Shown here piece after piece: positions 8,925 to 63,786 of a stretch of 64,000 nt of DNA. Within the stretch, counting starts at the first letter, position 1, and the number at the start of each line of letters is the position of its first letter. The stretch comes from Panulirus ornatus (Eukaryota > Arthropoda > Malacostraca > Decapoda > Palinuridae), in assembly GCF_036320965.1 (NCBI RefSeq), contig NC_092241.1:28344797-28408796 (forward strand). Direction: 5' to 3'. A program made the translations under genes and the position numbers. The notes below the pieces were generated by a model. It had not been told where the DNA came from, did no database searches, and saw only the letters and a list, made by a program, of their open reading frames with translations.

Positions 8925-9142
8925 CGGAATCTTCTCTCTTCCTCTTGTGGATATTTCCATTAGGATCTGTGAGGGGGGGAAGGCCGAGGATGCCGTTGAT
9001 GGAGTAGGACCCGGGGCGCTGGAGGACGGTCTCTTGAGGCGCGGGAGGGACGTGGGTGATGGCGGAGGTGGCCTGCGACACTGGTGAGGGCGTCCCTGAG
9101 AGCCCGTGCCTGACCTTCTCCGCTGCCTTGTTGCGCACTATT
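8925..9142 (-). CDS. Pax2/5/8: Pax2/5/8 exon 4: octapeptide and basic KRKR motif
   Basis: This 218-nt exon has an acceptor ending CCCACAG at 9143 and a donor GTGAGT at 8924. Its first A completes the Arg codon left by either exon 3a or 3b, giving SSINRIVRNKAAEK. A Ser/Pro/Thr-rich stretch follows. The octapeptide YSINGILG lies at 8983-9006 and is the form found in Pax2/5/8; in the family it recruits Groucho/TLE co-repressors. Next comes NIHKRKRED, matching the basic KRKR(D/E) stretch after the octapeptide in PAX2 and PAX5, a probable nuclear localisation signal. The exon ends after one base of a Gly or related codon, so at least one more exon is needed. The partial homeodomain and C-terminal transactivation exons were not recognised below this point. 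Confidence 0.95.
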
Positions 9143-16794: not shown

Positions 16795-16992
16795 CTGTTG
16801 ATGGAGGACACGGAGGGTACGTTCTCCTGGGTACAAACATTCTCCACAAGCAGCCTGTCCCGGATCTCCCAGGCGAACATGGTCGGGTTCTCCCGTTTGT
16901 ACCTGGCAATGGTGTCCACCACCAGGGGAGTCGCTACTTTGGGTTTGGAGCCGCCGATGATACTGGCCTTATAGTTTCCGGTCTCGTAAAAT
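16795..16992 (-). CDS. Pax2/5/8: Pax2/5/8 exon 3b: divergent alternative copy of the paired-domain exon
   Basis: A second 198-nt exon, a tandem duplicate of the preceding one. The acceptor is a pyrimidine tract ending CTTTTAG at 16993 and the donor is GTAAAG at 16794. Spliced to exon 2 it reads [20 protein letters not shown], then [14 protein letters not shown] and VPSVSSIN with a final AG, so phase and length equal those of exon 3a. By eye 46 of 65 complete residues match exon 3a. The helices and tryptophan are kept, but the linker SIRPGV becomes NYKASI. There is no stop or frameshift, so it is unlikely to be a dead copy. I infer use as an alternative to exon 3a with changed DNA recognition; transcript evidence is not available here. 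A decaying pseudo-exon is the main alternative. Confidence 0.88.
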
Positions 16993-17041
16993 CTAAAAGA
17001 AAACGACGAGGTCGGTTTAATTATTGTCAGCCGTCACCCAC

Positions 17042-17239
17042 CTGTTAATACTGGAGACAGATGGAACGCCCTCCTGGTCACACACACCATCTGCCAGAAG
17101 CCGCTCCCGGATCTCCCAGGCAAACATAGTGGGGTTCTGTTTCTTGTAGTTGGCGATGGCTTCCACCACTGTAGGTGTGGCCACCTTGGGCTTAGACCCG
17201 CCGATTACACCGGGTCTGATGGATCCCGTCTCATAGTAC
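17042..17239 (-). CDS. Pax2/5/8: Pax2/5/8 exon 3a: canonical C-terminal half of the paired domain
   Basis: This 198-nt exon encodes the linker and C-terminal (RED) subdomain of the paired domain. Its acceptor is CCTTCTTGCAG at 17240 and its donor is GTGGGT at 17041. The first G completes the Arg codon begun in exon 2, giving [20 protein letters not shown]. It continues through [14 protein letters not shown] to VPSVSSIN and ends with AG of an Arg codon. The [14 protein letters not shown] linker is the conserved form that runs in the DNA minor groove in paired-domain crystal structures. [10 protein letters not shown] is typical of Pax2/5/8. It joins the exon at 9142 in phase. Another exon of the same length and phase follows after 49 nt. 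Confidence 0.96.
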
Positions 17240-21924: not shown

Positions 21925-22090
21925 CTGGAGAGGATCTTGGAGACGCAGCCGTGGGAGACGCGGAGCTGGCGGGAGATGTCGCAGGGGCGGACGCCGTTGT
22001 GAGCCAGCTCCACGATTCTCTGACGAACCATGTCCGGGAGCGGCCGCCCGTTCACGAACACTCCGCCCAGCTGGTTCACTCCGCCATGAC
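21925..22090 (-). CDS. Pax2/5/8: Pax2/5/8 exon 2: N-terminal half of the paired domain
   Basis: This 166-nt exon encodes the N-terminal (PAI) subdomain of the paired DNA-binding domain. It opens [19 protein letters not shown] and ends in the recognition-helix stretch [12 protein letters not shown]. The acceptor is a pyrimidine-rich tract ending CCGCAG at 22091 and the donor is GTAGAT starting at 21924. It begins with two bases that complete a Ser codon from exon 1 and ends with AG of an Arg codon. [13 protein letters not shown] and [10 protein letters not shown] are typical of the Pax2/5/8 class; Pax6 differs at these places. The product is a nuclear transcription factor; the Drosophila orthologue shaven/sparkling acts in sensory organ and eye cell fate. 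Assignment to this family is secure. Confidence 0.97.
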
Positions 22091-31732: not shown

Positions 31733-31787
31733 TAGTATAATATTCCATCGCGTTATGGCTGTAGCGGTAGGCTTTGGCCAGGTCCAT
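31733..31787 (-). CDS. Pax2/5/8: Pax2/5/8 exon 1 (start codon, N-terminal 18 codons)
   Basis: Probable first coding exon of the Pax2/5/8 gene. The ATG at 31787 opens 18 codons beginning MDLAKAYRY, then one extra base (A), then a GTAAGA donor at 31732. Vertebrate PAX5 also begins MDLEKNY shortly before its paired domain. The extra base joins the first two bases of the exon at 22090 (GT) to make AGT (Ser), giving ...[14 protein letters not shown], so the phase fits exactly. The frame is open upstream to a GTG codon at 31898, but the ATG at 31787 is the first ATG in that stretch and its position fits the family. It sits in a GC-richer block. The exon is short and assigned by homology of a few residues plus phase and donor, so an alternative upstream start or a second N-terminal exon is possible. 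Confidence 0.72.
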
Positions 31788-41800: not shown

Positions 41801-43804
41801 GAGCGTTATCTGTTCCCAGAATTTAACTAATGAACTGTATACACTGGGTTTTAGACTTACTATTTTATCCTTCATGACGACGTGGAGCAAGGGAGAGGGG
41901 AAGCAGTGCTGCAGCAGATATCTGCTGACATGGGAATGTGGAGAAGAGAAGATGGTCACCAGCATTCGAGAGAGTAGGTTATATTTTCCTCCTTTGTCTC
42001 CTTCTGTAGACCATTCTAAGGCAGCCGTTGTGCGAGTTCTATACGGTATTTGTTCCTCTTTGCTCGGCCATATGAATAATTGCTTTGTCCAAAGCTGTAT
42101 GTATCGGTGTGCTCATGTCTTTCAATTGAAGAAGCATTAGCACAATGAACACCATAGAAATGCACTTTTTACTTAATTTTTGGCAAAGCGCTAAAACAAA
42201 CTTTAATTTATGGCATCCGTTTACAGAGAGTTTTATTTATTCTAGGTATTATCCAGAGGTTCTTGTGGGTGCAATGAGCAGGTAATGATGGCAAATGATG
42301 GAAAACACGAATCGAGTTATCTGAAGTTCATGAAACGCTGGGATCCGATGAGTTCTGCATGGGAAGTGTATGGGAAGGACTAGCGACTACGCGAATATTC
42401 TATCCATTATCCTTAATTCCGTTTCCATTTATGTGGGACGGATCAGGTACAAGCAGCACTCTCTCAGGTCACATTCTAACTTATATCGTCAACTGAAATC
42501 CGGTGTTCTGTGGTATACAAAGCTTTCCACAAAGATGTATGTGCTTTTTCATTCTTCATGTGGTTCACTAAGATGATTCATCAGAGACTAACGTCTCCTT
42601 CCTTATCTACGCCTTTACACACAGATATTATTTCATTGTACAAATCAACTGAGAATGAAAACCAACTGTATCTGCCGAGAGCTTGGGTCTTAAGCGGAAC
42701 ACTCCGGCTGCCCCATGACTGGCTCTATTGATCCGTAGGGTTGCTGGTGGTTGCGACTACCAAGCATTAGCGCTGTAGAAATCCTTTGAATTGATACTCT
42801 TCCTTTATGGAAGCGACAAATTGCGCTAAATGATACTCACATATAATGAGTGGACACGGTGAACATAAGTTTACATAAGCCAATTTTTCTACACCGTCAA
42901 TTTGAACCGAAAATATATCATCTGCACTTTACCTCCGCACATTTTTTTTTTTTCGCCATTTCACTACCACCTCTCCAAGTCCTAGCTCACAGCTCCAAGA
43001 TTCTTCTATCCTGGAAGGTTACTTTCCTGTCTTTAGCCATCCCTGGCGGCGATGCTCTGCACGCGTCAAGGCCCCGCGGCACACTAGAGGGGAGGACCCA
43101 GCTACAGGGAGGGAGTTTGGACTTGCAGAGGAGGCAAAGTCGTCCGTTATTTTGTATGTGAGCGTTATCAAGAGCAGCCACACGCATGGTCGATGGTCCA
43201 CAACCGGAACTGCTGGAGTGGGGTTGGGGGACAAGCCGAGAGAACAGTGAGGCAGAAGGGTGGGAGGAGGGTGGTACTCACGCACGGTCAGACGGGGAGA
43301 GAAGCAGGATGAGAGGGAAGAGAGGAAGAGATCAGACAACGGCTGGCGGGCTGGGCGAGGCGATGAAATGACGACTGAGAGAAAAGGGTGGAAAATCCTG
43401 AATCAAGAGCACTCAAACACAAAGCGACGAAGGTATCATTAAAAGTGAAGGATTAGGGCTGATCTTCTCTTTGTGCGTCACGACCGTTCACGTCACAGCG
43501 GGAAGTGTGTGCAGGTGACCCAGTGTCCTGTTCGAATAATGAGCACACCCGCTCTCATAGATGAGTGACATTAGGTTCTTGAGGAGCGCCATTAGTCAAA
43601 ATTCGACAAAGTTTACGCGAAAGGTTTATGCTTCCCCGAGTATAACCTTTACGAGGTTATACATGGACAGAGGAGTGTCTGAGGTATGGCAGGAAGGGCA
43701 AGTGCCCTGGGCCCCACTTGAAGGGGGGCGCCACTCAACAGGTTTGTTTTTTGATATATGCTACCCGATTGACATTTTTAACGGTTTGGTTTTGAGATGA
43801 AAAA

Positions 43805-46800
43805 AACAAACAAACTCGCATTTCAAAATTGAAAGATAAGATATTCAGACACTTCTATACTTGAAATAATCATTTAACATATATCATAATGCTCTCAGTT
43901 ACCGATTCATACCCAGTAAATACGATGCAAAGGATAAAAAAAAATCTTCAAAATTGACTTCATTTAACAGCTTAAATGAATGTCATAAAGACAACTAAAC
44001 GATATTTCGAAACCAAATTATTATACAGCACGAAAAGTACTTCTTGTAATGAATTTTTAAAGGAAATCCATTTTTCTGAGAAAATGCCAAAAATTGAAGG
44101 GTATTTTTTAGCTCCAAAATCTTTTTGATTTAAAATTGAAAGATAAGATATTCAAACACTTCTATACTTGAAAGAATCATGGAAAATATATCATAATGCT
44201 CTTAGTCACCGATACATACCCAGTAAATTTGATGCAAGGGATCAGAATATATTTGAAATTGAATTCATTTAACAGCTTGATTGAATGTCATAAAGACGAC
44301 TAAACGATCCTCTAACACCAGATTTGTATTAAGCATAAATTATACTTCTTATAATGAATTTTTAAAGGAAATCTACTTTTCTCAGAAAAATGCCAAGAAT
44401 TGAGGGAATTTTTTTTTGCTCAAATTTTTTGTGTCAAAATTGAAAAATGAAATATTCAACCACTTCTATAACTGAAATAATCATGGAAGTTATGTCAGAG
44501 AATATTTAAAAATGAATTCATTTAACAGCTTCTTTGAATGGCATGTAGATGACTAAACGATATTCTAACACCAGATATGTATTCAGCATAAAATATACTT
44601 CTCATAATGAGTTTTTAAAGGAAATCTATTATTCTGAGAAAAATACCAAAAATTGAAATTAATACCTCAGGGTATCTTTCGGCTCCAAAAACTTTTTGTT
44701 TCAAAATTGAAAGATAAAATGTTCAAACACTTCTATACTTGAAATGATCATGGGAAATAGATCATACTGCTCTCAGTTACCGATACATACCCAGTAAATA
44801 CGATGCAAAGGAGCACAAAATATTTTGAAAGTAACTTCATTTAACAGCTTAACTGAATGTCCGAAATAAGACTAAACGATATAATAACATTAGATTTGTA
44901 TTAAGCTTGAAAAATACTTCTTATAATGAGTTTTTAATGGAAACCAATTTTTTTGACAAGGTAACACTTCAGGGTATCTTTTAGATCAAAATCTATTTTG
45001 TTTCAAAATTGAAAGACAAGATACTCAAACACTTCAATACGTAAAATAGTCGTGAAAAATATATAATAATGCTCTCTGTTACCGATACATACCCAGTAAC
45101 AACGATGCAAAGGAGCAGAAAATATTTCAAAATAGACTTCATCTAACAGCTTAAATGAATGTCATAAAGACGACTAAGCGATATTTTAACACCAGATTTG
45201 TATTCAGCATGAAAATACTTCTTGTAATGAGTTTTTAAAGGTAATCTATTTTTCTGAGAAAAATGCCAAAACTGAAGGTATTTTTTAGCTCAAAAATCAT
45301 TTTGTTATAAATTGAAAGATAAGATATTCAATACTTCTATACTAGAGAAAATAATGGAAAATATATCATAATGCTTTTAGTCACCGATATATACCCAGTA
45401 AATACAATGCAAAGGATCAGAAAATATCTAAAATTGAATACATTCAACAGCTTAATTGAATGTCATAAAGACGATTAAACGATATTCTAAAATCAGATTT
45501 CGATTCAGCATAAATGATACTTCTAATATAGATTCTTTTAAAGGAAATCTGTTTGTATGAGATAAATGCCAAAAATTGCAGGGCATTTTTTAGCTCAAAA
45601 AACTTTTTGTTTGAAAATTAATATGTAAGATATTCAAACACCTCTATACTTGAAATAATCATGGAAAATATATGGTAATACTCTCGCTTACCAAGACATA
45701 CCCAGTATTCATGATGCAATGAAGCAGATATATTTCAAAATTAACTTCATTTAACAGCTTAAATGAATGTCATAAAGACGACTAATCGATATTTTAACAC
45801 AAGATTTCACTTCAGCATGAAGATTAATTCTTATAACGAGTTCTTAAAAGAAATCGATTTTTCTGAAAATAATGCCAAAAACTGAAGGTAATAAATAATT
45901 TAGTTCAGGGAATTCTTTACCTCAAAGAAATTTTCTTTCAAAATTGAAAGATAAGATATTCAAATACTTCTATACTTGAAATAAACATGGAAAATATATC
46001 AGAAAGCTCTTAGTCACCTATACATACCCAGTAAATACGATGCAAAGGATCAAAAAATGATTAAAATTGAATTCCTTTAACAGCTTAATTTAATGTCATT
46101 AAGACGATTAAACGATATTCTAACATCAGATTTGTATTCAGCATAAATGATGATTCTCATATTCAGTTTTTAAAGGAAATCTATTTGCATGAGAAAAATG
46201 CCAAAAATTGCAGAACAGTTCAGGTATTTTCTATCTCAAAAAACTTTTTGTTTGAAAATTATTAGATAAGATATTCAAACACCTCTATACTTGAAAAAAT
46301 CATGGAAAATATATAGTAATGCTCTCACTTACCGATACACACTCAGTAAATACGATGCAAAAGCAGAAAATATTTTGAAATGGCCTTCATCTAACAACTT
46401 AAATTAATGTCATAAAGACGACTAAACGATATTTCAACACAAGCTTTCTATTCAGTATGAAAAATTATTCTTATAATGAGTTTTTAAAGGAAATCTATTT
46501 TTCTGAGAAAAATGCCAAAAATTGAAGGCAAAAGTTCGGGAAATCTTTTAGCTCAAAGAACTTTATATTTCAACATTGAAAGATAAGATTTTTAAACACT
46601 TTTATACCTGACATAAACATGGAAAATATATCATAATGCTCTTAATCACCAATACAAAAACAGTAAATACGATTCAAAGGATCAAAAAATATCTAAAATT
46701 GAATTCATTTACCAGCTTAATTGAATGTCATAAATATGATTAAACGATATTCTAACATCAGATTAGTATTCAGCATAAATGATAATTCTCATATTGAGCT

Positions 46801-49800
46801 TTTAAAGGAAATCTTTTTTGTATGAGGAAAAATGCCAAAAATTGCAGGTATTTTTTAGCTCAAAAAACTTTTTCATTGAAAATTAATAGATAAGATATTC
46901 AAACACTTTTATACTTGAAATAATCATGGAAAATATATGGTAATGCTCTCACTTACCAATACATACCCTTTAATTATGATGCAAAAGAGCAGAAATATTT
47001 TAAAATTGACTCCATTTAACAGCTTAAATGAACGTCATAATGAGGACTAAACGATATTTCAACACAAGATTTCTATTCAGTATCAAAAATAGTTCTATAC
47101 TTATATACTTGAAATAAACATGGAAAATATATCATAATGCTCTTAGTCACCTACATTTACCGAGTAAATACGATGCAAAGTATCAAAAAATACGTAAAAT
47201 TGCAGGTATTTTTTAGCTCAAAAAACTTTTTCTTTGACAATTAATAGATAAGATATTCAAACACCTCTATACTTGAAATAATCATGGAAAATATATGGTA
47301 ATGATCTCACTTACCAATACATATCCAGTAATTATGATGCAAAAGAGCAAAAATATTTTAAAAGTGACTTCATTTAACAGCTAAAAGGAATGTCATAAAG
47401 ACGACGAAACGATACTTTAACACAAGATTTCTATTCAGTATGAAAAATAGTTCTCATAATGAGTTTTTAAAGGAAATCCATTTTATAGAGAAGAATGACA
47501 AAAATTGAAGGTAATCAGGAAATTTTTTACCTCAAAAAACTTTTTCTTTCAAAATTGAAAGTTAAGATATTCAAACACTTCTATACTTAAAATAAACATG
47601 GAAAATATATCATAATGCTCTTAGTCACCTATACATACCCAGTTAATACGATGCAAAAAATATTTAAATTGAATTCATTTAAAAGATTAACTGACTGTCA
47701 TGAAGACGATTAAACGATATTCTAACATCGGTTTTCTACTGAGCATAAATGATAATTTTCATATTTAGTTTTTAAAGGAACTCTATTTGTATGAGAAAAA
47801 TGCCAAAAAATTGCACGTAATAGTTCATGGTATTATTTAGCTCAAAAAACTTTATCTTTGAAAACTAATAGATAACATATTCAAAACCTCTATACTTGAA
47901 ATAATCATGGAAAATATATGGTAATACTCTCACTTCCCGATACACTCCCAGTAAATACAGTGCGAAGAAGCAGAAAATATTTTGAAACTGACTTCATCTA
48001 ACAGCTTAAATGAAAGTCATAAAGACGACTAAACGATATTTCAAAACAAGATTTCTACTCAGAATGAAAAATAATTCTTATAATGAGTTTTTAAAGGAAA
48101 TCTATTTTTCTGAGAATAATGCCACAAAATCCAGGGAATTATTTCCTAAAAAAAACTTTTTCTTTCAAATGAAAAGATAAGATTTTTAAACACTTCTATA
48201 CTTGAAATAAACATGGAAAGTATATCATAATGCTCTTAGTCACCTGTACATACCCAGTAATTACGATGCAAAGGATCAAAAAATATTTGAAATTCAATTC
48301 ATTTAACAGCTTAATTAAATGTCATAAAGACGATCAAACGATATTCTAACATCAGATTTGTATTCAGCATAAATGATAACTCTCATATTGAGTTTTTAAA
48401 GAAAATCTATTTGTATGAGAAAAATGCCAAAAATTGCAGGTAATAGTTCAGGGTATTTTTTAGCTCAAAAAAACTTTTTGTTTGAAAATTAATTGATAAG
48501 ATATTCAAACACCTCTATACTTGAAATAATCATGGAAAATGTATGGTAATGCTCTCTTTCCAATTCATACCCAGTAATCATGACGCAAAGGGGCAGAAAT
48601 ATTTTAAACGACTTCATTTAACAGCATAAATGAATGTCATAAAAACGACTAAACGATATCTTAACACAAGATTTCCATCCAGTATGAAAAATAATTCTTA
48701 TAATGAGTTTTTAAAGGAAATCTATTTTTCTGAGAAAAATGCAAAAAATTGAAGGTAATAGTTCAGGGAATTTTTTACCTCAAAAATCTTTTTCTTTCAA
48801 AATTGAAAGATAAGATATTCAAACACTTCTATACTTGAAATAAACATGGAAAATATATCATAATTCTCTTAGTCACCTATACATACCCAGGTAAATACGA
48901 TGCAAAGGATCAAGAAATATTCAAAATTGAATTCATTTAACCGATTAACTGAATGTCATGAAGACCATTAAACGATATTCTAACATTAGATTTGTATTCA
49001 GCATAAATGATAATTCCCATATTGACTTCTTAAAGGAAATCTATCTGTATGAGAAAAATGCCAAAAATTGCAGGTAATAGTTCAGGGTATTTTTGAACTC
49101 AATAAAGCTTTTCTTTGAAAATTAATAGATAAGATATTCAAACACCTTTATACTTGAAATAATCATGGAAAATATATGGAATTGATCTCATTAACCAATG
49201 CATACCAATTAATTATGATGCAAGGGAGCAGAAATATTTTGAAATTCACTTCATTTAACAGCTTAAATGAATGTCATAAAGACGACTACACGATATTTTA
49301 AAACAAGATTTCTATTCAGCATGAAAAATAATTCTAATATTGAATTTTTAAAGGAAATCTATTAAAGGAAATCTAAAGGAAATCTGAGAAAAATGCAAAA
49401 TATTTATTACTTCAAAAATCTTTTTCTTTCAAAATTGAAAGATAAGATATCTAAAAACTTCTATACTTGAAATAAACAAGGAAATAAATCATAATGCTCT
49501 TATTTACCTGTACATATCTAAGAAAAACGTTGCAAAGGATCAAAAAATATTCAAAATTGAATTCATTTAACAGCTTAACTGAATTTCATAAAGACGATAA
49601 AACGATATTTTAACATCAGATTCCTATTCGCCATAAATGAAAATTCTCATATTGAGTTTTCATAGGAAATTTATTTGTATGAGAAAAATGCCAAAAATTG
49701 CAGATTATTTTTTAGCTCAAAAAACTTTTTGTTCGAAAATTAATAGATAAGATATTCAAACACCTCTATACCTGAAATAATCATGGAAAACATATGGTAA

Positions 49801-52800
49801 TGCTGTCACTTTCCATTAATTATGATGCAAAGGAGCACATATATTTTAAACCACTTCATTTAACAGCTTAAATGAATGTCATCAAGAAGACTAAACTGTA
49901 TTTTAACACAAGATATCTATTCAGCATGAAAAATAATTCTTACAATGCGTTTTTAAAAGAAATCTATTTTCTGAGAAAAATGTCAATTATTGAAGGTGAT
50001 AGTTTAGGGAATGTTTTACCTCAAAAATCTTTTTCTTTCAAAATTGAAAGATAAGATATTCAAACACTTCTATACTTGAAATAAACACAGAAAATATATC
50101 ATAATGCTCTTAGTCACCTATACATACCCAGAAAATACGATGCAAAGTATCAAAGAATATTTGAATATGAATTCATTTCTAGCTTAACTCAATGTCATGA
50201 AGACGATTAAACGATATTCTAACATAAGATTTCTATTCAGCATAAATAATAATTCACATATTGAGCTTTGAAGGAAATCTATTTGTAAGAGAAAAATGCC
50301 AAAAATTGCGGATAATAGTTCAGGGTATTTTTTAGCCTAAAAAACTTTTTGCTTGAAAATTGATAGATAAGATATTCAAACACCTCTATACTTGAAATAA
50401 TCATGAAATATATGGTAATGCTCTCCCTTCCCGATACACACCCAGTAAATACGATGCAAAGAAGCAGAAAATATATTGAAACTGACTTCATCTAACAGCT
50501 TAAATGAATGTCGTAAAGAAGAATAAACGATATTTCAACAAAAAAATTCTATTCAGTATGAAAAAATAATTCTTATAACCCGTTTTTAAAGGAAATCTAT
50601 TTTTCAGAGAAAAAATGCCAAAAATTGAAGGTAATAAATAGTTCAGGGAAATTTTTACCTCAAAAAACTTTTTCTATCAAAATTGAAAGATAAGATATTC
50701 AAACACTTCTATACTTGAAATAAACATGGAAAATATATCATAATGTTCTTAGTCACCTATACATACCCAGGAAATACGATGCAAAGGATAAAAAAAAAAA
50801 TTAGAATTGAATTCATTTAACAGCTTAATTGAATGTCATAGAGACGATTAAACGATATTCTAACATCAGATTTGTATTCAGTATAAATGATAATTCTCAT
50901 ATTGAGTTTTTAAAGGAAATCTGTTTGTATGAGAAAAAAACTTTTCGTTTGAAAATTAATAGATAAGATATTCAAACACCCCTATACTTGAAATAATCAT
51001 GGAAAATATATGGTAATGCTCTTACTTTCCAATACATACCTAGTAATTATGACGCAAAGGGGCAAAATATTTTAAACTTGACTTCATTTAACAGCTTAAA
51101 TGAATGACATAAAGACGACTAAACGATATTTTAACACAAGATTTCTATCCAGTATGAAACATAATTCTTATAATGAGTCTTTAAAGGAAATCTATTTTTC
51201 TGAGAAAAATGCCAAAAATTGAAGGTAATAGTTCAGGGAACTTTTTACCTCAAAAAACTTTTTCTTTCAAAATTGAAAGATAAGATATTCAAAAACTTCT
51301 ATATATGAAATAAACATGGAAAATATATCATAATGCTCTTAGTCACCTATACATACCCAGTAAATACGATGCAAAGGATCAAAAAATATTTAAAATTCAA
51401 TTCATCTAACAGCTTAACTGAATGTCATGAAGACGATTAAACGATATTCTAACAGATTTCTATTAAGCATAAATGATAATTCTCATATTGAGTTTTTAAA
51501 GAAAATCTATTTGTATGAGAAAAATGCCAAAAATAGCAGGTAATAGTTCAGGGTATTTTTTAGCTCAAAAAACTTTTTTTTTGAAAATTAATTGATATTC
51601 AAACACCTCGATACTGGAAATAATCATGGAAAATGTATGGTAATGCTCTCACTTTCCAATACATACTCAGTAATTATGACGCAAAGGGGCAGAAATATTT
51701 TAAACTTGACTTCATTTAACAGCTTAAATGAATGTCATAAAGACGATTAAACGATATTTTAACACAAGATTTCTATCCAGTATGAAAAATAATTCTTATA
51801 ATGAGTTTTTAAAGGAAATCTATTTTTCTGAGAAAAATGCAAAAAATTGAAGGTAATAGTTCAGGGAATATTTTACCTCAAAAATCTTTTTTTTTTCAAA
51901 ATTGAAAGATAAGATATTCAAACACTTCTATACTTGACATAAACATGGAAAATATATCATAATTTTTTTAGTCACCTATACATACCCAGTAAATACGATG
52001 CAAAGGATCAAAAAAATATCTAAAATTGAATTCATTTAACAAAAGTCTTGTATTCATCGTGAAAAATACTTCTTTTAATGAGCTTTTAAAAGAAATCCAT
52101 TTTTCTGAGAAAATTACCCAAAATTGAAGGTAATACTTAAGGGTATTTTTTTTAGCTCAATTTTTTTTTTTTTTTTCAAAATTGAAGCATGAGATATTCA
52201 AACACTTCATGAAATACATATCATAACGTTCTCAGTTACCGATACATATTCTGTAAATACGATGTAAAGGAACAGAAATATTTTAAAACTGACTTCATTT
52301 AACAACTTAATTGAGTGTCATTATGATGACTAAAAGTTATTTCAAAACCAGATTTCCATTCAGCAAAAGAAATACTTCATTTATTGAGTCTATAAAGGAA
52401 ATCTTTTTTCTGAGAAAATTCCCAAAATTTGAAGGTAATAGTTCAGGGTATTTTCTAGGTCAAAAAACGTTTTGCTTCAAAATTGATGCATGAGATATTC
52501 AAAGACTCCTACCCTTGAAATAATCATGAAATATTTATCATAATGGTCTCAATTACCGATACATACTCATTAAATACGATGTAAAGGATCAAAAATATTT
52601 TAAAATTGACTTAATTTGACAACTCAATTGAGTGTCATTATGATGACTAAAAGTTATCTTAACACCAGTTTTTCATCCAGCATGAAAATTACTTCATTTA
52701 ATGATTTTATAAAGGAAATTTTTTTTCTGAGAAAAATACCGAAAATTAAAGTAATAGTCCAGGGTATTTTTTTGCACCGAAAACATTTTGCTTTAAAATT

Positions 52801-52985
52801 GAAACATGAGATATTCAAACACTTCGTACTTGAAATAATCATGAAAAATATATCATAAAACTCTTAGTTACCGATACATACTCAGGAAATACGATGCAAA
52901 GGAACAGAAATATTTCAAAATTGACTTCATTCGACAGCTTAGTTGAGTGTCATTAAGATGACTGAAAGTTATTCTAACACAAGAT
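43805..52985. repeat. AT-rich satellite array, about 305-320 bp monomer, roughly 30 copies
   Basis: Nearly 9.2 kb consists of one monomer repeated head to tail. Anchors recur once per unit: GATAAGATATTCAAACAC, CTATACTTGAAATAA, CATACCCAGTAAATACGATG, ATTTAACAGCTTAA, TGTCATAAAGACGA and TTTTTAAAGGAAATCTATTT. Spacing of the CCCAGTAA anchor is mostly 302-318 bp, with shorter intervals where units are deleted (near 44.5 and 47.1-47.3 kb). The array is strongly AT-rich and its open frames are broken. It ends at a CA/TA tract at 53.01 kb. Location near a centromere or in another heterochromatic block is possible but cannot be judged here. Confidence 0.93.
45600..52040. repeat. A-B dimer higher-order repeat within the satellite
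   Basis: Monomers here fall into two alternating classes. Class A has ACTTCTATACTTG with AATAAACATGG, ATATCATAATGCTCTTAGTC and AAAGGATCAAAAAATA. Class B has ACCTCTATACTTG with AATAATCATGG, ATATATGGTAATGCTCTC and GGAGCAGAAATATTT. Class-specific differences extend through the second half of the unit (GATTAAACGATATTCTAACA against GACTAAACGATATTTTAACA). The A-B unit repeats about every 620-635 bp, about ten times, with one disordered stretch near 47.1-47.3 kb. Confidence 0.85.
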
Positions 52986-53007
52986 TTGTATTCAGCATAA
53001 AAAGCTC

Positions 53008-53356
<349 letters not shown>

Positions 53357-57320: not shown

Positions 57321-59675
57321 CTGGTGCCTCGTATATATGGATATATTCCAGGCAAAAGGCCTCATAACTGATTATGCTGGAATGAGTCGTAACAGAGGAG
57401 GTGTCCACAACCTGAGCCTGCGGGTGTGACTGCAGGGTACAGCTTGTGACCAGGTGTAACGCAAACACTCCTCTCTCTCTCTCTTCAGGATGCTTTGTTT
57501 TTATATCACCAAGTTCCTCGTTACACCAACCTCACCCTCTTAAATTGCATTTATTTTTCCCCTGCGACGACTCAAGAGAATTCTTAAGGAACAACTCGAG
57601 TCATCTTGACCTGGTGACAGGAGAAGATAAGTACACAGTGACGGTCAGGAGGCACAAAACAAAGGCTTTAGGACTGCACAGGGTGGATGGCCTAAAGAAC
57701 AACACTGGCTTCAGGCCTGCATATGTTAGAAGGCCAAGAGCACAATATGTACACGGTTAGGGCCAAGAGACACACAACACTGGATTGAGGTCTGAACAGA
57801 GAAGCAGTTGTTATGCCAAAGCATTATTCAAGATACAAGGCTACGCTTACTGTATGGAATCTAAGTATATTTTTCATACCTCCAAACTTTTCATGCTCCC
57901 TCATTTATCATGCTTTAGGCATCTATCGCTCTCTTTCCTCTATCTTGTTACTTCATAGATAATTTTCCCATCCTCACTTATCTTTTGATTTACATATTCT
58001 CATACGTTTCTCAGGTTCATTACCTCGCAGGTCTGTCGTACTCCATCTCTTGCCCCTCAAGATCTTGCATACTATCTCATACTTTTATCATATCCTCTCA
58101 CAGGACTCTCATTCCCCTCGCTCCTGCTCTAACGTGTCTGTCAGGGTGCACTGAACAATAGCTATCAAGGTGAGGCTTTACCATTATTTCTTCTGATGGG
58201 CAGCAATTACAGGTACTTCATCATGGCTGGATCCTTCAATCAAGAGTTAAGTACATAGAGGCCATTTTGCTCATGAAATTAGCAAAATTAATGATAATCA
58301 GCAGAAGCTGATAAGGTAAAAGCAGCTTATGCACTTCAAGCCTTCACTTATGATGGGTTGGATCAGATTTATACCCGAAAGTATTTAACAATAAAAGCCC
58401 TTCGATAATCGATGATCAGTGGATGATACCAAGCTATGTGCAAGAGAGAGAGAGTGAGAGTTTTGTTTGATACTGAAGATTAATCACTTTCTCTTGTCAG
58501 ACCATGTTATGTTAATAGGTCCTGCTTATCTCCTTAGTGGTATTCCCATGTAATGTCACACATCATGATCACATGTCTTATCATACGACGTAACAGGTCT
58601 TACTCTGGAGTTGAGTCCAGATGCGTTGATCACTGGGCTTGCGTCAAAGATTGTGGTCAGGAGTCATGGAATTTGTTCAGACTTACACTTTATGATCCTG
58701 AGGTTGTACCCACATTTCGACACGTGTAGTGTAGTGCTCGATTCTATAGCCTGCAGTTATTCTGGACTTAACTAAAATGCTTAATTACGTGATGCGTCAT
58801 TATTATCGGCTTGGACGCAAAGGTCATATCCATAAGTTGAGGACAGAGGACGTGTTCATGACCTTTATTTCATGTCATGGTACTCAGGTCGTTTCCACTT
58901 TTTCCAGCTTGCCTGATAGTAACCTAATCAACAGTCAGCTAAAGTGGGTTTGACAGTCATATTTACTAGGTGATGAAGCTACAACTGTACTTTACAGACT
59001 GTCAAGTGGTCGTTATGTAGGCTCAACCATTGGATGCCAGGGGTAACTAGTTAATATGATCTTGTCCAAATTTTGCTCGAAGACAATAAGTAAATTGACA
59101 AAAGATGGAAAAAATAAACACTTGATCCATAGTCAATGCTGTTTCCTGGCTTTTATACAAATAAGATTCTCTTAATTTATACACAGAACAATAATTTCAA
59201 TTATTTTCTTCGTAGAAGCAGTTCTATTTCATAATGCTGACGAAACGAGGTGGGTAAGTTAGAGAGTCCAAATGGCATAGCTATGATTCCGGATATGAGA
59301 ATTCGGTCTAACAACAAAATGAAAACGCTGCAAGCCATGCAGTAGGAGAGTGACTCCGCTTTCCTCTTTATATGAATGCAGAGAACTTGCTTGTGTTGAG
59401 GAACTTTCCAAAAAGCTGTAGATCAATTGGCTTTTGCGAGGAGACTTCCCACTTTGTGTAAGGAATAAGTAATGACTGGTAGTTAATGCACGGGTGGGAG
59501 GATGGTCGAGCCATAGTCGGAAGAGAGAAGAATGGAAAGCATTGTCTTGATCTTTCAAACGTGTTGTCTTTCAGGTCGATCTACAACTGGTTAAGTATAC
59601 CACTTGTGACCATACGATCTCACACTGCGACTTACCCTACTGCAACTGTAGACATCATCACGTTCTCCTCGTTAA

Positions 59676-60325
59676 GGTCAACAACTATGATCATTCGATA
59701 TTAACGTTAACAACTTTAATCATCAGATATTAACGTTAACAAGAATAGGTATCAGATATTAACGTTAACAACTATGAACATCAGATATTAATGTTAACAA
59801 GAATAATTATTAGATATGAACGTTAACATCTATGAGCATCAGATATCAATGTTAACAAATATAAACATCAGATATAAATGTTAAGTAGTATGGATATCAG
59901 ATATCAATGTTATCAGTTGTCAGTATCATCGCTATTGAACACTAGATATCATTGTTAACGGCTACAAACATCAGATGTTAACGTTAACAACAATGAACAT
60001 CAGATATTAATGTTAACAACATTGAACATCAGATATTAACGTTAACACCAATGAACATCAGATATTAATGTTAACAATTATGAACATCAGATATTAATGT
60101 TAACAACTATGAACATCAGATATTAATGTTAACAACAATGTACATCAGATATTAACGTTAACAACAATGAACATCAGATACTAATGTTAACAACTATGAA
60201 CATCAAATGTTAATGTTAACAACTACGAACATCAGATATTAAGGTTAAAAGCTATGACCATGAGATAATTATGGTAACTACGAACATCTTATATTAATGT
60301 TAACAATTATGAACATCAGATATCT
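59676..60325. repeat. 29-bp minisatellite, about 22 copies
   Basis: The unit is close to GTTAACAACTATGAACATCA followed by GATATTAAT or GATATTAAC. Copies vary by substitutions and a few indels in the middle (59.88-59.96 kb). Units with GATATTAACGTTAAC contain the palindrome TTAACGTTAA. No coding function is suggested. Confidence 0.88.
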
Positions 60326-60948
60326 TCATAGGCATCCCCTCAGTAGATGCTGGCTGATACATCAGTGAGGTGATCCTTGCGCTACATACTGCTGACAGAG
60401 ATACGGGGGAAGGGTTGACCCATGCAATACTTTAGTGCTGGCAGATAAGGATAACTGATAAAGATAATTGATAAGTCTGTATCTCAACCATAGTGTACAT
60501 CCTACTGTCTATCTTACTTCTTAGCCGCTACTATTTATGTGTAAATACATACTTGTAATTAAATATCTGTACTGTTAGGGTAAGAATTTTTACACTCCTT
60601 AGGCCTCGATCGCTTGAATATTGTCTATTATTCTACAGTCTTTTAAACTTCTGTATATTGTCGATATTTACCATATACCCTTTCAGTTTCTTTTATTCGT
60701 CCACCGATCATAAGCCATAAAAGTACTTAACTATAGCTTTTTATTAAGCACCTTGCTTAATTTCATGCTATGTCCTGTGGTTGTCTTATCCCTACCTCTT
60801 TCATGGAACTGTTCGCTATCTACACCATCGATCGGGTTTATGAACATAAATGTAGTGATCAAATCATCCCTCACGCTTCTCTCTTCCTTGGTGGGGAAGT
60901 TAAAGGCTTTCCTGAAACTTATCTCTCTTAATTCTGGTACCATCTTTG

Positions 60949-61445: not shown

Positions 61446-62175
61446 CACAACAAGGTACTTAAAATGTTAGTGCCCCACTACTCCACCACAGCCTCCTGCT
61501 ATTCCACATTAGCGTTAACACAACACGGGGTTCTCATACCTTGATCCTGTTGACCACTCGAGAAACCTGACAAGGAGAAAGACATTCAGATAAGAAATAT
61601 ACAGATCACATACGGTCGCTGACATAGTAGATCTACCACTTTATGACCTACCTGCTCCTCGACTTAGATCTGTCCTGCAGCAAACAATAGCAATATTACA
61701 GATATGGATTTTGGTGAACTTGGCTGTGTGTTAATTAACGACATTTGTTAGACACCGAATTTCAATATCCTTACTAGATTCGTCAAAACAGTGTATCCTG
61801 CCTGTTCAACACAGTCCAAAGATCGAACTACTTTACTAAGAAATTCTACGATATTCATTATCATTATCATCTTATAATCATTATTATTATCAATAATATC
61901 ATTATGATGATGATCATCATCATTATACACAATATCACGAACAATATATTTCTTCTATGAATATCACAATAAATATTTAGACAAAACTTTATATTTTTGT
62001 TAAAATTAACATAATATTGAAACCAACATTATATTGTTATTTTCATCGTATTATCATTACGTACAGTACTTCACTAAAGTGTTACTCTACACTGTAGTTT
62101 ATGTATGCCACACTGAAAACGTCTGTTAGTCGTCTGATCGACTAGGAAAAAAAATGTGGTATAAGGAATAAGAAA

Positions 62176-62179
<4 letters not shown>

Positions 62180-62264
<85 letters not shown>
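62180..62264. repeat. (TA)n microsatellite
   Basis: About 42 units at the 5' truncation point of the RTE insertion. Confidence 0.95.
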
Positions 62265-62265
<1 letters not shown>

Positions 62266-62269
<4 letters not shown>

Positions 62270-63786
62270 AAGAGGTAGTAAAAGCTTTGCGGAAGATGAA
62301 AGCCGGCAAGGCAGCAGGTTTGGATGGTATTGCAGTGGAATTTATTAAGAAAGGGGGTGACTGTATTGTTGACTGGTTGGTAAGGTTATTTAATGTATGT
62401 ATGACTCATGGTGAGGTGCCTGAGGATTGGCGGAATGCGTGCATAGTGCCATTGTACAAAGGCAAAGGGGATAAGAGTGAGTGCTCAAATTACAGAGGTA
62501 TAAGTTTGTTGAGTATTCCTGGTAAATTATATGGGAGGGTATTGATTGAGAGGGTGAAGGCATGTACAGAGCATCAGATTGGGGAAGAGCAGTGCGGTTT
62601 CAGAAGTGGTAGAGGATGTGTGGATCAGGTGTTTGCTTTGAAGAATGTATGTGAGAAATACTTAGAAAAGCAAAGGGATTTGTATGTAGCATTTATGGAT
62701 CTGGAGAAGGCATATGATAGAGTTGATAGAGATGCTCTGTGGAAGGTATTAAGAATATATGGTGTGGGAGGCAAGTTGTTAGAAGCAGTGAAAAGTTTTT
62801 ATCGAGGATGTAAGGCATGTGTACGTGTAGGAAGAGAGGAAAGTGATTGGTTCTCAGTGAATGTAGGTTTGCGGCAGGGGTGTGTGATGTCTCCATGGTT
62901 GTTTAATTTGTTTATGGATGGGGTTGTAAAGGAGGTAAATGCAAGAGTCCTGGAAAGAGGGGCAAGTATGAAGTCTGTTGGGGATGAGAGAGCTTGGGAA
63001 GTGAGTCAATTGTTGTTCGCTGATGATACAGCGCTGGTGGCTGATTCATGTGAGAAACTGCAGAAGCTGGTGACTGAGTTTGGTAAAGTGTGTGGAAGAA
63101 GAAAGTTGAGAGTAAATGTGAATAAGAGCAAGGTTATTAGGTACAGTAGGGGTGAGGGTCAAGTCAATTGGGAGGTGAGTTTGAATGGAGAAAAACTGGA
63201 GGAAGTGAAGTGTTTTAGATATCTGGGAGTGGATCTGTCAGCGGATGGAACCATGGAAGCGGAAGTGGATCATAGGGTGGGGGAGGGGGCGAAAATTTTG
63301 GGAGCCTTGAAAAATGTGTGGAAGTCGAGAACATTATCTCGGAAAGCAAAAATGGGTATGTTTGAGGGAATAGTGGTACCAACAATGCTGTATGGTTGCG
63401 AGGCGTGGGCTATGGATAGAGATGTGCGCAGGAGGATGGATGTGCTGGAAATGAGATGTTTGAGGACAATGTGTGGTGTGAGGTGGTTTGAGCGAGTAAG
63501 TAACGTAAGGGTAAGAGAGATGTGTGGAAATAAAAAGAGCGTGGTTGAGAGAGCAGAAGAGGGTGTTTTGAAATGGTTTGGGCACATGGAGAGAATGAGT
63601 GAGGAGAGATTGACCAAGAGGATATATGTGTCGGAGGTGGAGGGAACGAGGAGAAGAGGGAGACCAAATTGGAGGTGGAAAGATGGAGTGAAAAAGATTT
63701 TGTGTGATCGGGGCCTGAACATGCAGGAGGGTGAAAGGAGGGCAAGAAATAGAGTGAATTGGAGTCATGTGGTATACAGGGGTTGA
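62266..63786 (+). mobile_element. RTE-type non-LTR retrotransposon, reverse transcriptase ORF (5'-truncated)
   Basis: An uninterrupted frame runs from the TA tract at 62264 to a TGA at 63784-63786. The first ATG (62296) is internal to a frame already open at 62266, so the 5' end is cut off. Reverse transcriptase blocks appear in order: GKAAGLDGI near the start, NYRGISLLS, CGFRSGRGCVDQ, AFMDLEKAYDRV (first catalytic Asp), GLRQGCVMSPWLFN, and LLFADDTALVA with the catalytic FADD at about 63017-63028, then FRYLGVDLS of the thumb and LYGCEAWAM of the C-terminal region. There is no RNase H. The apurinic-type endonuclease expected upstream is missing. The C terminus carries the basic GTRRRGRPNWRWKD stretch typical of this group. 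The open frame suggests recent insertion. Truncation within the RT makes it non-autonomous. Confidence 0.93.

What the first reader, a model, noticed from the sequence alone, without database searches (positions are those of the whole stretch)
16795..17239. Two alternative paired-domain exons in tandem in a Pax2/5/8 gene
Seen in the sequence: two minus-strand exons of exactly 198 nt, each with a good acceptor and donor, the same entry and exit phase, and open frames encoding the linker plus C-terminal half of a paired domain. They match at about 46 of 65 residues, so the duplication is old, yet neither copy has a stop or frameshift. Known: Pax6 and Pax8 alter DNA binding by alternative splicing inside the paired domain, but through a small inserted exon or residue. 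I do not know of a described whole-exon swap in Pax2/5/8. Inference: one gene makes two transcription factors with different DNA specificity.
Basis: partly seen in the sequence, partly recalled or inferred. Interest (0 to 1): 0.92.

Follow-up and report, generated by a model that had tools for sequence, protein, structure and literature searches.

The report
Swappable DNA-binding exons in lobster Pax
A spiny-lobster developmental gene carries two interchangeable versions of the exon for half of its DNA-binding domain, a very old choice of which insects seem to keep only one version, and the lobster has repeated the whole gene about seventeen times along one chromosome.

Summary
The window is Panulirus ornatus: micro-exon, exon 2, 3b and exon 4 match a predicted isoform (P0269), and that model uses 3b.
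The genome holds at least 17 Pax2/5/8 loci on this chromosome. 3a is intact in 17 of 17, 3b in 14 of 17. Where 3b is intact the 3a-3b intron is only 49-51 nt. In 16 of 17 loci a CTAAC branch-point-like motif lies 24-25 nt after the 3a donor, too close for 3a-3b splicing, so the pair should be mutually exclusive; the window copy alone lacks that motif.
3b is not the odd exon. Its linker type is the form found in insects, Artemia, copepods and barnacles, while 3a is outgroup-like; a tree puts the duplication near the base of Pancrustacea. 3b copies show purifying selection (dN/dS 0.23).
Not shown: RNA support, and any difference in DNA binding. I found no paper describing the swap.

The parts
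61540..61566 (-). 27-nt alternative upstream coding micro-exon (FSSGQQDQ), acceptor tcag, donor gtatga; spliced to exon 2 in protein P0269
   Evidence: matches P0269 residues RFSSGQQDQ-GHGG (printed); the first exon (MITMDIPP...) was not found in the window
31733..31787 (-). coding part of an alternative first exon (MDLAKAYRYSHNAMEYYT, donor A|gtaaga), homologous to MDLTAAYRYN.NMMEYYT of other crustacean Pax2/5/8 proteins
21925..22090 (-). exon 2: N-terminal half of the paired domain
17042..17239 (-). exon 3a: linker plus most of the C-terminal half, ancestral-type linker GSIRPG
16993..17041 (-). 49-nt intron between 3a and 3b; the CTAAC motif kept in the 16 sister loci is replaced by TAATTAAAC here
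16795..16992 (-). exon 3b: same part of the domain, derived-type linker (GNYKAS here; GSYKAG in the 13 other intact copies)
8925..9142 (-). exon 4: end of the last paired-domain helix, octapeptide YSINGILGL, KRKRED

Best explanation
Exons 3a and 3b are a mutually exclusive pair in a Pax2/5/8 (shaven-type) gene of Panulirus ornatus. Exon 2 is joined to either 3a or 3b, and that exon to exon 4, so the gene makes two proteins that differ only in the paired-domain linker and helices 4-5. SHOWN in sequence: both exons intact, in phase and conserved; predicted isoforms of each kind. INFERRED: joint inclusion is prevented because the inter-exon intron is about 50 nt, so any branch point for 3b inside it lies close to the 3a donor (24-25 nt for the conserved motif) and the two splice sites cannot be occupied together (the alpha-tropomyosin type of steric block, recalled). 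The pair arose by duplication near the base of Pancrustacea: 3a kept the ancestral linker (SIRPG), 3b acquired a new one (S[FY]KAG). In Panulirus the gene was then copied to at least 17 loci, some of which have lost 3b.
For: Exact exon anatomy. P0269 matches the window's micro-exon, exon 2, 3b and exon 4 and uses 3b. Both exon types in the models of one paralogue, L020, and in models of Macrobrachium and Cherax on contigs of equal length. The pair lies side by side in gene models of Petrolisthes, Portunus, Procambarus and the barnacle Amphibalanus (P0001-P0004). Own genome: 3a intact 17 of 17, 3b intact 14 of 17. Mean NG86 dN/dS over 14 loci: 3a 0.045, 3b 0.234 (3b 0.208 without the pseudogene-like L013), although flanking introns have diverged almost to shuffle level (52% upstream, 55% downstream, against 49% and 51% for shuffles). 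Intron 49-51 nt wherever 3b is intact; CTAAC at intron position 24-25 in 16 of 17 loci (in L009 the script reported an earlier second copy at position 15, the position-25 copy is read from the printed intron). PMC5740500, passages read, uses less than 50 bp from donor to branch point as its steric criterion. Tree: 3b rows of insects, Artemia, copepods, barnacles and malacostracans on one side of a branch with support 97/93, the 12 3a rows on one side of a branch with 99/92; a duplication confined to malacostracans is rejected at AU p = 0.042.
Against: No RNA reads could be examined; the proteins are database predictions and their RNA support is unknown. For the window's own gene only a 3b model was visible; its 3a form is not directly shown (P0269 stands for 5 cluster members that I could not open). 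The window copy alone of 17 lacks the CTAAC motif, and its linker NYKASI occurs in P0269 only among the 332 proteins fetched, so 3b here may be weakening. 3b has decayed in 3 of 17 paralogues. Petrolisthes, Portunus and Amphibalanus models join 3a to 3b in frame, as if both were included. The tree rests on 66 columns, its bootstrap had not settled, the AU value is borderline, and I named the groups after seeing the first tree. Holding all pancrustacean 3a and 3b rows together was not rejected either (p 0.53), which fits the reading but does not prove it.
Confidence: 0.82

Rival explanations
1. In the window copy 3b is on the way out: the exon is open but poorly spliced, so this gene makes essentially the 3a protein, as the three paralogues with broken 3b must.
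For: Window copy alone of 17 lacks CTAAC in the short intron, and its linker NYKASI is seen in no other fetched protein except P0269. 3b decayed in L010, L011 and L022; the predicted proteins of L010 and L011 (P0127, P0123) carry 3a. 3a is intact in 17 of 17.
Against: The predicted protein of this very gene, P0269, uses 3b; 3b frame, acceptor and donor are intact; a cTGAc at intron position 15 could serve as branch point.
Confidence: 0.15
2. The swap is real, but the two proteins bind the same sites; the pair is kept for regulation or by drift and conversion, not for different DNA specificity.
For: The final helix is identical in both forms; insect Pax2/5/8 proteins with the 3b-type linker are, as recalled, able to act through ordinary Pax2/5/8 sites; both forms score as full PAX domains.
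Against: The linker change (SIRPG to S[FY]KAG) is conserved across Pancrustacea, and both exons are kept by selection side by side.
Confidence: 0.35
3. Both exons are normally included together (a lengthened C-terminal half) or act as independent cassettes.
For: All four combinations stay in frame; three gene models (P0001, P0002, P0003) join 3a to 3b.
Against: The about 50-nt intron with a branch-point-like motif 24-25 nt from the donor in 16 of 17 loci; joint inclusion would duplicate half a DNA-binding domain; 45 of the 51 malacostracan records tallied carry one of the two linkers only (3 carry both, 3 gave no linker; the hybrid model P0184 counts there as 3a).
Confidence: 0.04

Closest known systems
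Insect shaven/sparkling (Pax2/5/8)
   Same: same gene family; its exon 3 has the 3b-type linker SFKAG in the insect records read
   Different: no insect Pax2/5/8 exon of the crustacean 3a type among the 120 best of 3614 hits to 3a, apart from one fly record of outgroup type (P0182) that may be contamination
Pax6(5a), Pax8(S) and other paired-domain splice variants of chordates
   Same: alternative splicing alters the paired domain of one Pax gene
   Different: those insert or delete a small piece (Pax8(S) recalled); PMC4488758 (passages read) reports such events in chordate Pax2/5/8 and Pax6 and, in the passages seen, no swap of duplicated whole exons
Mutually exclusive tandem exons by steric block (alpha-tropomyosin type, recalled)
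   Same: homologous neighbouring exons of equal length and phase; intron too short for joint splicing; criterion under 50 bp in PMC5740500 (passages read)
   Different: here in a DNA-binding domain of a Pax regulator; the block is predicted, not tested
Arthropod Dscam and N-cadherin exon clusters
   Same: tandem duplicated exons with mutually exclusive choice in arthropods (titles and abstracts in a search listing only)
   Different: cell-surface proteins; a single pair here, but repeated in about 17 gene copies

Membership tests
Pax2/5/8 transcription factor | complete paired domain | tested here: met
   PF00292 over positions 1-125 of 125 with either exon 3; best solved relative Pax5 1k78, E 5.3e-70 for the 3b form
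Pax2/5/8 transcription factor | octapeptide (YSxxGILG, recalled form) | tested here: met
   YSINGILGL in exon 4
Pax2/5/8 transcription factor | no complete homeodomain | tested here: met
   P0269 carries PF00292 as its only listed Pfam domain; its 3' exons were not found in the window, so this rests on that protein
Mutually exclusive exon pair | adjacent homologous exons of same length and phase with own splice sites | tested here: met
   14 of 17 paralogous loci
Mutually exclusive exon pair | each exon joined to both flanking exons in transcripts | tested here: inconclusive
   predicted isoforms of both kinds; no reads available
Mutually exclusive exon pair | the two exons not spliced to each other | not testable with these tools
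   needs RNA-seq; the short intron predicts it
Steric-block type of exclusion | donor to branch point under about 50 nt | tested here: met
   whole intron 49-51 nt where 3b is intact; CTAAC at position 24-25 in 16 of 17 loci; in the window copy the motif is absent but the whole intron is 49 nt. Branch points are motif matches, not mapped

The most novel reading that the evidence does not exclude
A two-state paired domain has existed since the base of Pancrustacea: a swap between an ancestral-linker and a derived-linker exon in Pax2/5/8. Insects appear to have dropped the ancestral exon, so that insect shaven proteins run on the derived one, while malacostracans and barnacles keep both. Spiny lobsters then multiplied the switch into about 17 genes in one chromosomal region, in which the exons for the paired domain are kept nearly identical while introns have drifted almost past recognition, as if by exon-limited gene conversion.
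Probability: 0.6. Interest if true: 0.82.

Novelty: new variant of a known kind. Interest (0 to 1): 0.72.

Why it matters
Pax2/5/8 proteins are textbook conserved regulators of eye, sense-organ and nervous-system development (recalled). If one crustacean gene can swap half of its DNA-binding domain, gene identity no longer equals one binding specificity, and binding data from insects, which carry only the 3b type in what I saw, would describe just one of the two ancestral forms. The lobster cluster gives 14 loci with both exons and 3 natural losses of 3b, which makes the function of the second exon directly testable. A cluster of about 17 copies of a normally low-copy developmental regulator is striking by itself.

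Tried and rejected
Chance or pseudo-exon: rejected for the pair as a whole by intact frames, sites and dN/dS. Duplication confined to malacostracans: rejected weakly (AU p 0.042). Recent gene copies as the reason for near-identical exons: rejected because flanking introns have diverged almost to shuffle level; some similarity remains (29 of 136 upstream pairs and 52 of 120 downstream pairs exceed every shuffle, at most 62% and 68%). A search of phage records was uninformative, as expected. Six paper searches aimed at Pax splicing and two on lobster genomes showed no description of a whole-exon swap in Pax2/5/8 or of a Pax cluster in spiny lobsters; I read passages of one of the papers listed there (PMC4488758), and the library lacks most subscription journals. 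A search for minor-groove contacts of the Pax5 linker found nothing, so statements on linker contacts are recalled. No structure was predicted.

Errors of my own: tblastn with a strand option returned nothing (part) and was repeated without it for exon 4; the linker count used a wrong pattern and was redone; the downstream mean was dragged down by L016, where 504 of 1501 bases read N, and was redone without it. Row P0004_Procambarus_0 was dropped before the AU tests, and one environmental record (P0099) was named twice in the 3b group there. The tree used 61 rows chosen by hand from the proteins fetched. Exon 4 was found in 14 of 17 loci within 10 kb; L016 (a stretch of N follows exon 3b), L022 and L025 were not found, and 4 of the 14 with gaps or a frameshift were left out of its dS, leaving 10.

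Full report
What is there. The minus strand of the window carries a Pax2/5/8 gene. Its paired domain is coded by exon 2 (22090-21925), one of two neighbouring 198-nt exons 3a (17239-17042) and 3b (16992-16795), and exon 4 (9142-8925), which also holds the octapeptide YSINGILGL. Both versions of exon 3 have good acceptors and donors, the same phases and open frames; they agree at 47 of 66 residues and 136 of 198 nt, with dN 0.22 and dS 2.1.

Which gene and which animal. Protein P0269, named an uncharacterized protein of Panulirus ornatus (isoform X2) in its source, matches the window's exon 2, exon 3b and exon 4 at every residue coded there, and its residues RFSSGQQDQ match a 27-nt micro-exon at 61566-61540. 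The contig in which the window lies, C18, is 60,297,985 bases long, the contig length listed for the Panulirus proteins. So the window is Panulirus ornatus, and a public gene model of this gene already uses 3b. An alternative first exon (MDLAKAYRYSHNAMEYYT) lies at 31787-31733.

The genome holds many copies. A search of the window's own assembly for the PAX family gave 68 matches, counts being lower bounds. Of these, 48 lie on C18 between 26.5 and 35.7 Mb: 17 copies of exon 2, 17 of 3a and 14 of 3b. Fourteen of the 17 loci form seven + then - (convergent) pairs. I fetched all 17 exon-3 stretches and all 17 exon-2 stretches. 3a is intact in 17 of 17 and has the same protein sequence in 16 of 17. 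3b is intact with acceptor and donor in 14 of 17; in L010 and L022 it has stops and gaps, and in L011 only a remnant of about 90 nt aligns. L010 keeps a GT at the donor place, L022 does not. Exon 4 was found within 10 kb in 14 of 17 loci; 13 of these match, over all but the first 2 and last 6 residues, one Panulirus protein each (two for L020), and L013, whose exon 4 is frameshifted, matches none. L025 shares its 3b sequence with P0239 and P0240. Among the proteins so assigned, 3b is used in models of L015 (the window), L017, L018, L019, L020, L021 and L025, and 3a in models of L009, L010, L011, L012, L014, L020, L023 and L024. L020 has both. Each listed protein stands for a cluster at 90% identity, so other isoforms may be hidden. 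The two assigned loci with broken 3b (L010, L011) have 3a models, as they must.

Selection on each exon. Mean pairwise NG86 values over the 14 loci with both exons: 3a dS 0.043, dN/dS 0.045; exon 2 dS 0.054, dN/dS 0.022; 3b dS 0.187, dN/dS 0.234. Without the pseudogene-like L013, 3b has dN/dS 0.208. So 3b is under purifying selection, weaker than 3a. Over 10 loci with a gap-free exon 4, its dS is 0.226 and dN/dS 0.268. Flanking introns have diverged almost to shuffle level: upstream of 3a identity averages 52% (17 loci; shuffles 49%), downstream of 3b 55% (16 loci, L016 left out because it reads N there; shuffles 51%), with a residue of similarity in 29 of 136 and 52 of 120 pairs. In the alignment of 14 loci identity falls from 93% in the last 20 nt before 3a to 59% at 50-100 nt. 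So dS near 0.05 in exons 2 and 3a does not look like the mark of young copies. Either exons are homogenised by conversion or their synonymous sites are constrained. The closest partner of a locus changes from exon to exon (for example 3b of L009 is identical to that of L014, while its exon 2 is identical to those of L018 and L021), which favours conversion. I did not test this formally.

How the choice should work. Where 3b is intact, the 3a-3b intron is 49-51 nt. In 16 of 17 loci it contains CTAAC, a branch-point-like motif, with its A 24-25 nt from the 3a donor and 25 or 26 nt from the end of the intron where an acceptor exists (L009, with a 51-nt intron, also has an earlier copy at position 15, which the script reported in its place). 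A survey of human mutually exclusive exons counts a donor-branch point distance under 50 bp as potential steric interference (PMC5740500, passages read). Joint inclusion would not break the frame, so frame-based removal cannot enforce the choice; steric block can. The Procambarus model P0004, which reads through this intron, has 16 residues there, consistent with 51 nt, and its residues YLT are compatible with CTAAC at the same place; this is an inference from protein letters. The window copy is the exception: TAATTAAAC stands where CTAAC stands elsewhere, so its 3b may be used less.

Age and direction. Protein searches scored on 3b and on 3a, each showing its best 120 hits, indicate that the 3b-type linker (S/N-F/Y-KAG) is the form in insects, Artemia, copepods, barnacles and malacostracans, while 3a (SIRPG) resembles chelicerates, the millipede Chamberlinius and vertebrates. 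Of 62 records P0271-P0332, mostly insects, 58 have SFKAGV and 4 had no readable linker. Both exons occur together in models of Petrolisthes, Portunus, Procambarus and the barnacle Amphibalanus; 3a also in krill and the amphipod Hyalella. A tree of 61 hand-picked rows separates the 3b group (97/93) and the 3a group (99/92), though its bootstrap had not settled. Holding all 3b rows, all 3a rows, or all 3a and 3b rows together is not rejected (AU p 0.72, 0.61 and 0.53); holding malacostracan 3a and 3b together is rejected at p 0.042. With 66 columns and groups named after the first tree, this is moderate evidence. The best reading is duplication near the base of Pancrustacea, with later loss of 3a in insects. 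Against it: I found no direct trace of 3a in branchiopods or insects in capped lists, and one fly record (P0182) carries an outgroup-type exon that may be contamination.

Function. The differences fall in the linker, which in solved paired domains lies in the minor groove (recalled), and in helices 4-5; the last helix is the same. Different binding is plausible but not shown. The window copy's linker as a whole (NYKASI) occurs in no other fetched protein except P0269.

Known or new. Chordate Pax genes alter the paired domain by small insertions or alternative splice sites; the passages seen in PMC4488758 describe no swap of duplicated exons. No paper describing this swap, or the Panulirus cluster, appeared in my searches. 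Predicted isoforms of both kinds are in public databases, so the sequences are known but, as far as I could find, not described.

Noticed in passing
own genome G000:C18:26.5-35.7 Mb (window locus at 28.34-28.41 Mb): 17 Pax2/5/8 loci in one region, 14 of them in convergent pairs.
   Followed up: yes
L009-L042: Exons 2 and 3a nearly identical at synonymous sites across copies while introns have diverged almost to shuffle level; exon-limited conversion or synonymous constraint.
   Followed up: partly
L013 (G000:C18:27392600-27394000) and L047: Copy that looks pseudogenic: frameshifted exon 4 and unusual changes in 3b, no matching protein among those fetched.
   Followed up: partly
proteins P0072, P0074, P0076 (Artemia franciscana): Isoforms differ in exon 2 (N-terminal half of the paired domain), suggesting a separate exon-2 swap in a branchiopod.
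   Followed up: no
protein P0184 (Panulirus ornatus): Low-quality model that starts as 3a and ends like 3b (ending SSNNR); I could match it to none of the 17 loci read.
   Followed up: no
protein P0182 (Rhagoletis zephyria): A fly record with an outgroup-type GSIRPG exon; possibly contamination by another arthropod.
   Followed up: no
window 43789-53113: Satellite-like array with spacing mostly about 300-320 bp.
   Followed up: no
window 59584-60337: Tandem repeat with 29-bp period.
   Followed up: no
window 62146-63786 (+): 546-codon open frame resembling a reverse transcriptase of a non-LTR element by eye.
   Followed up: no
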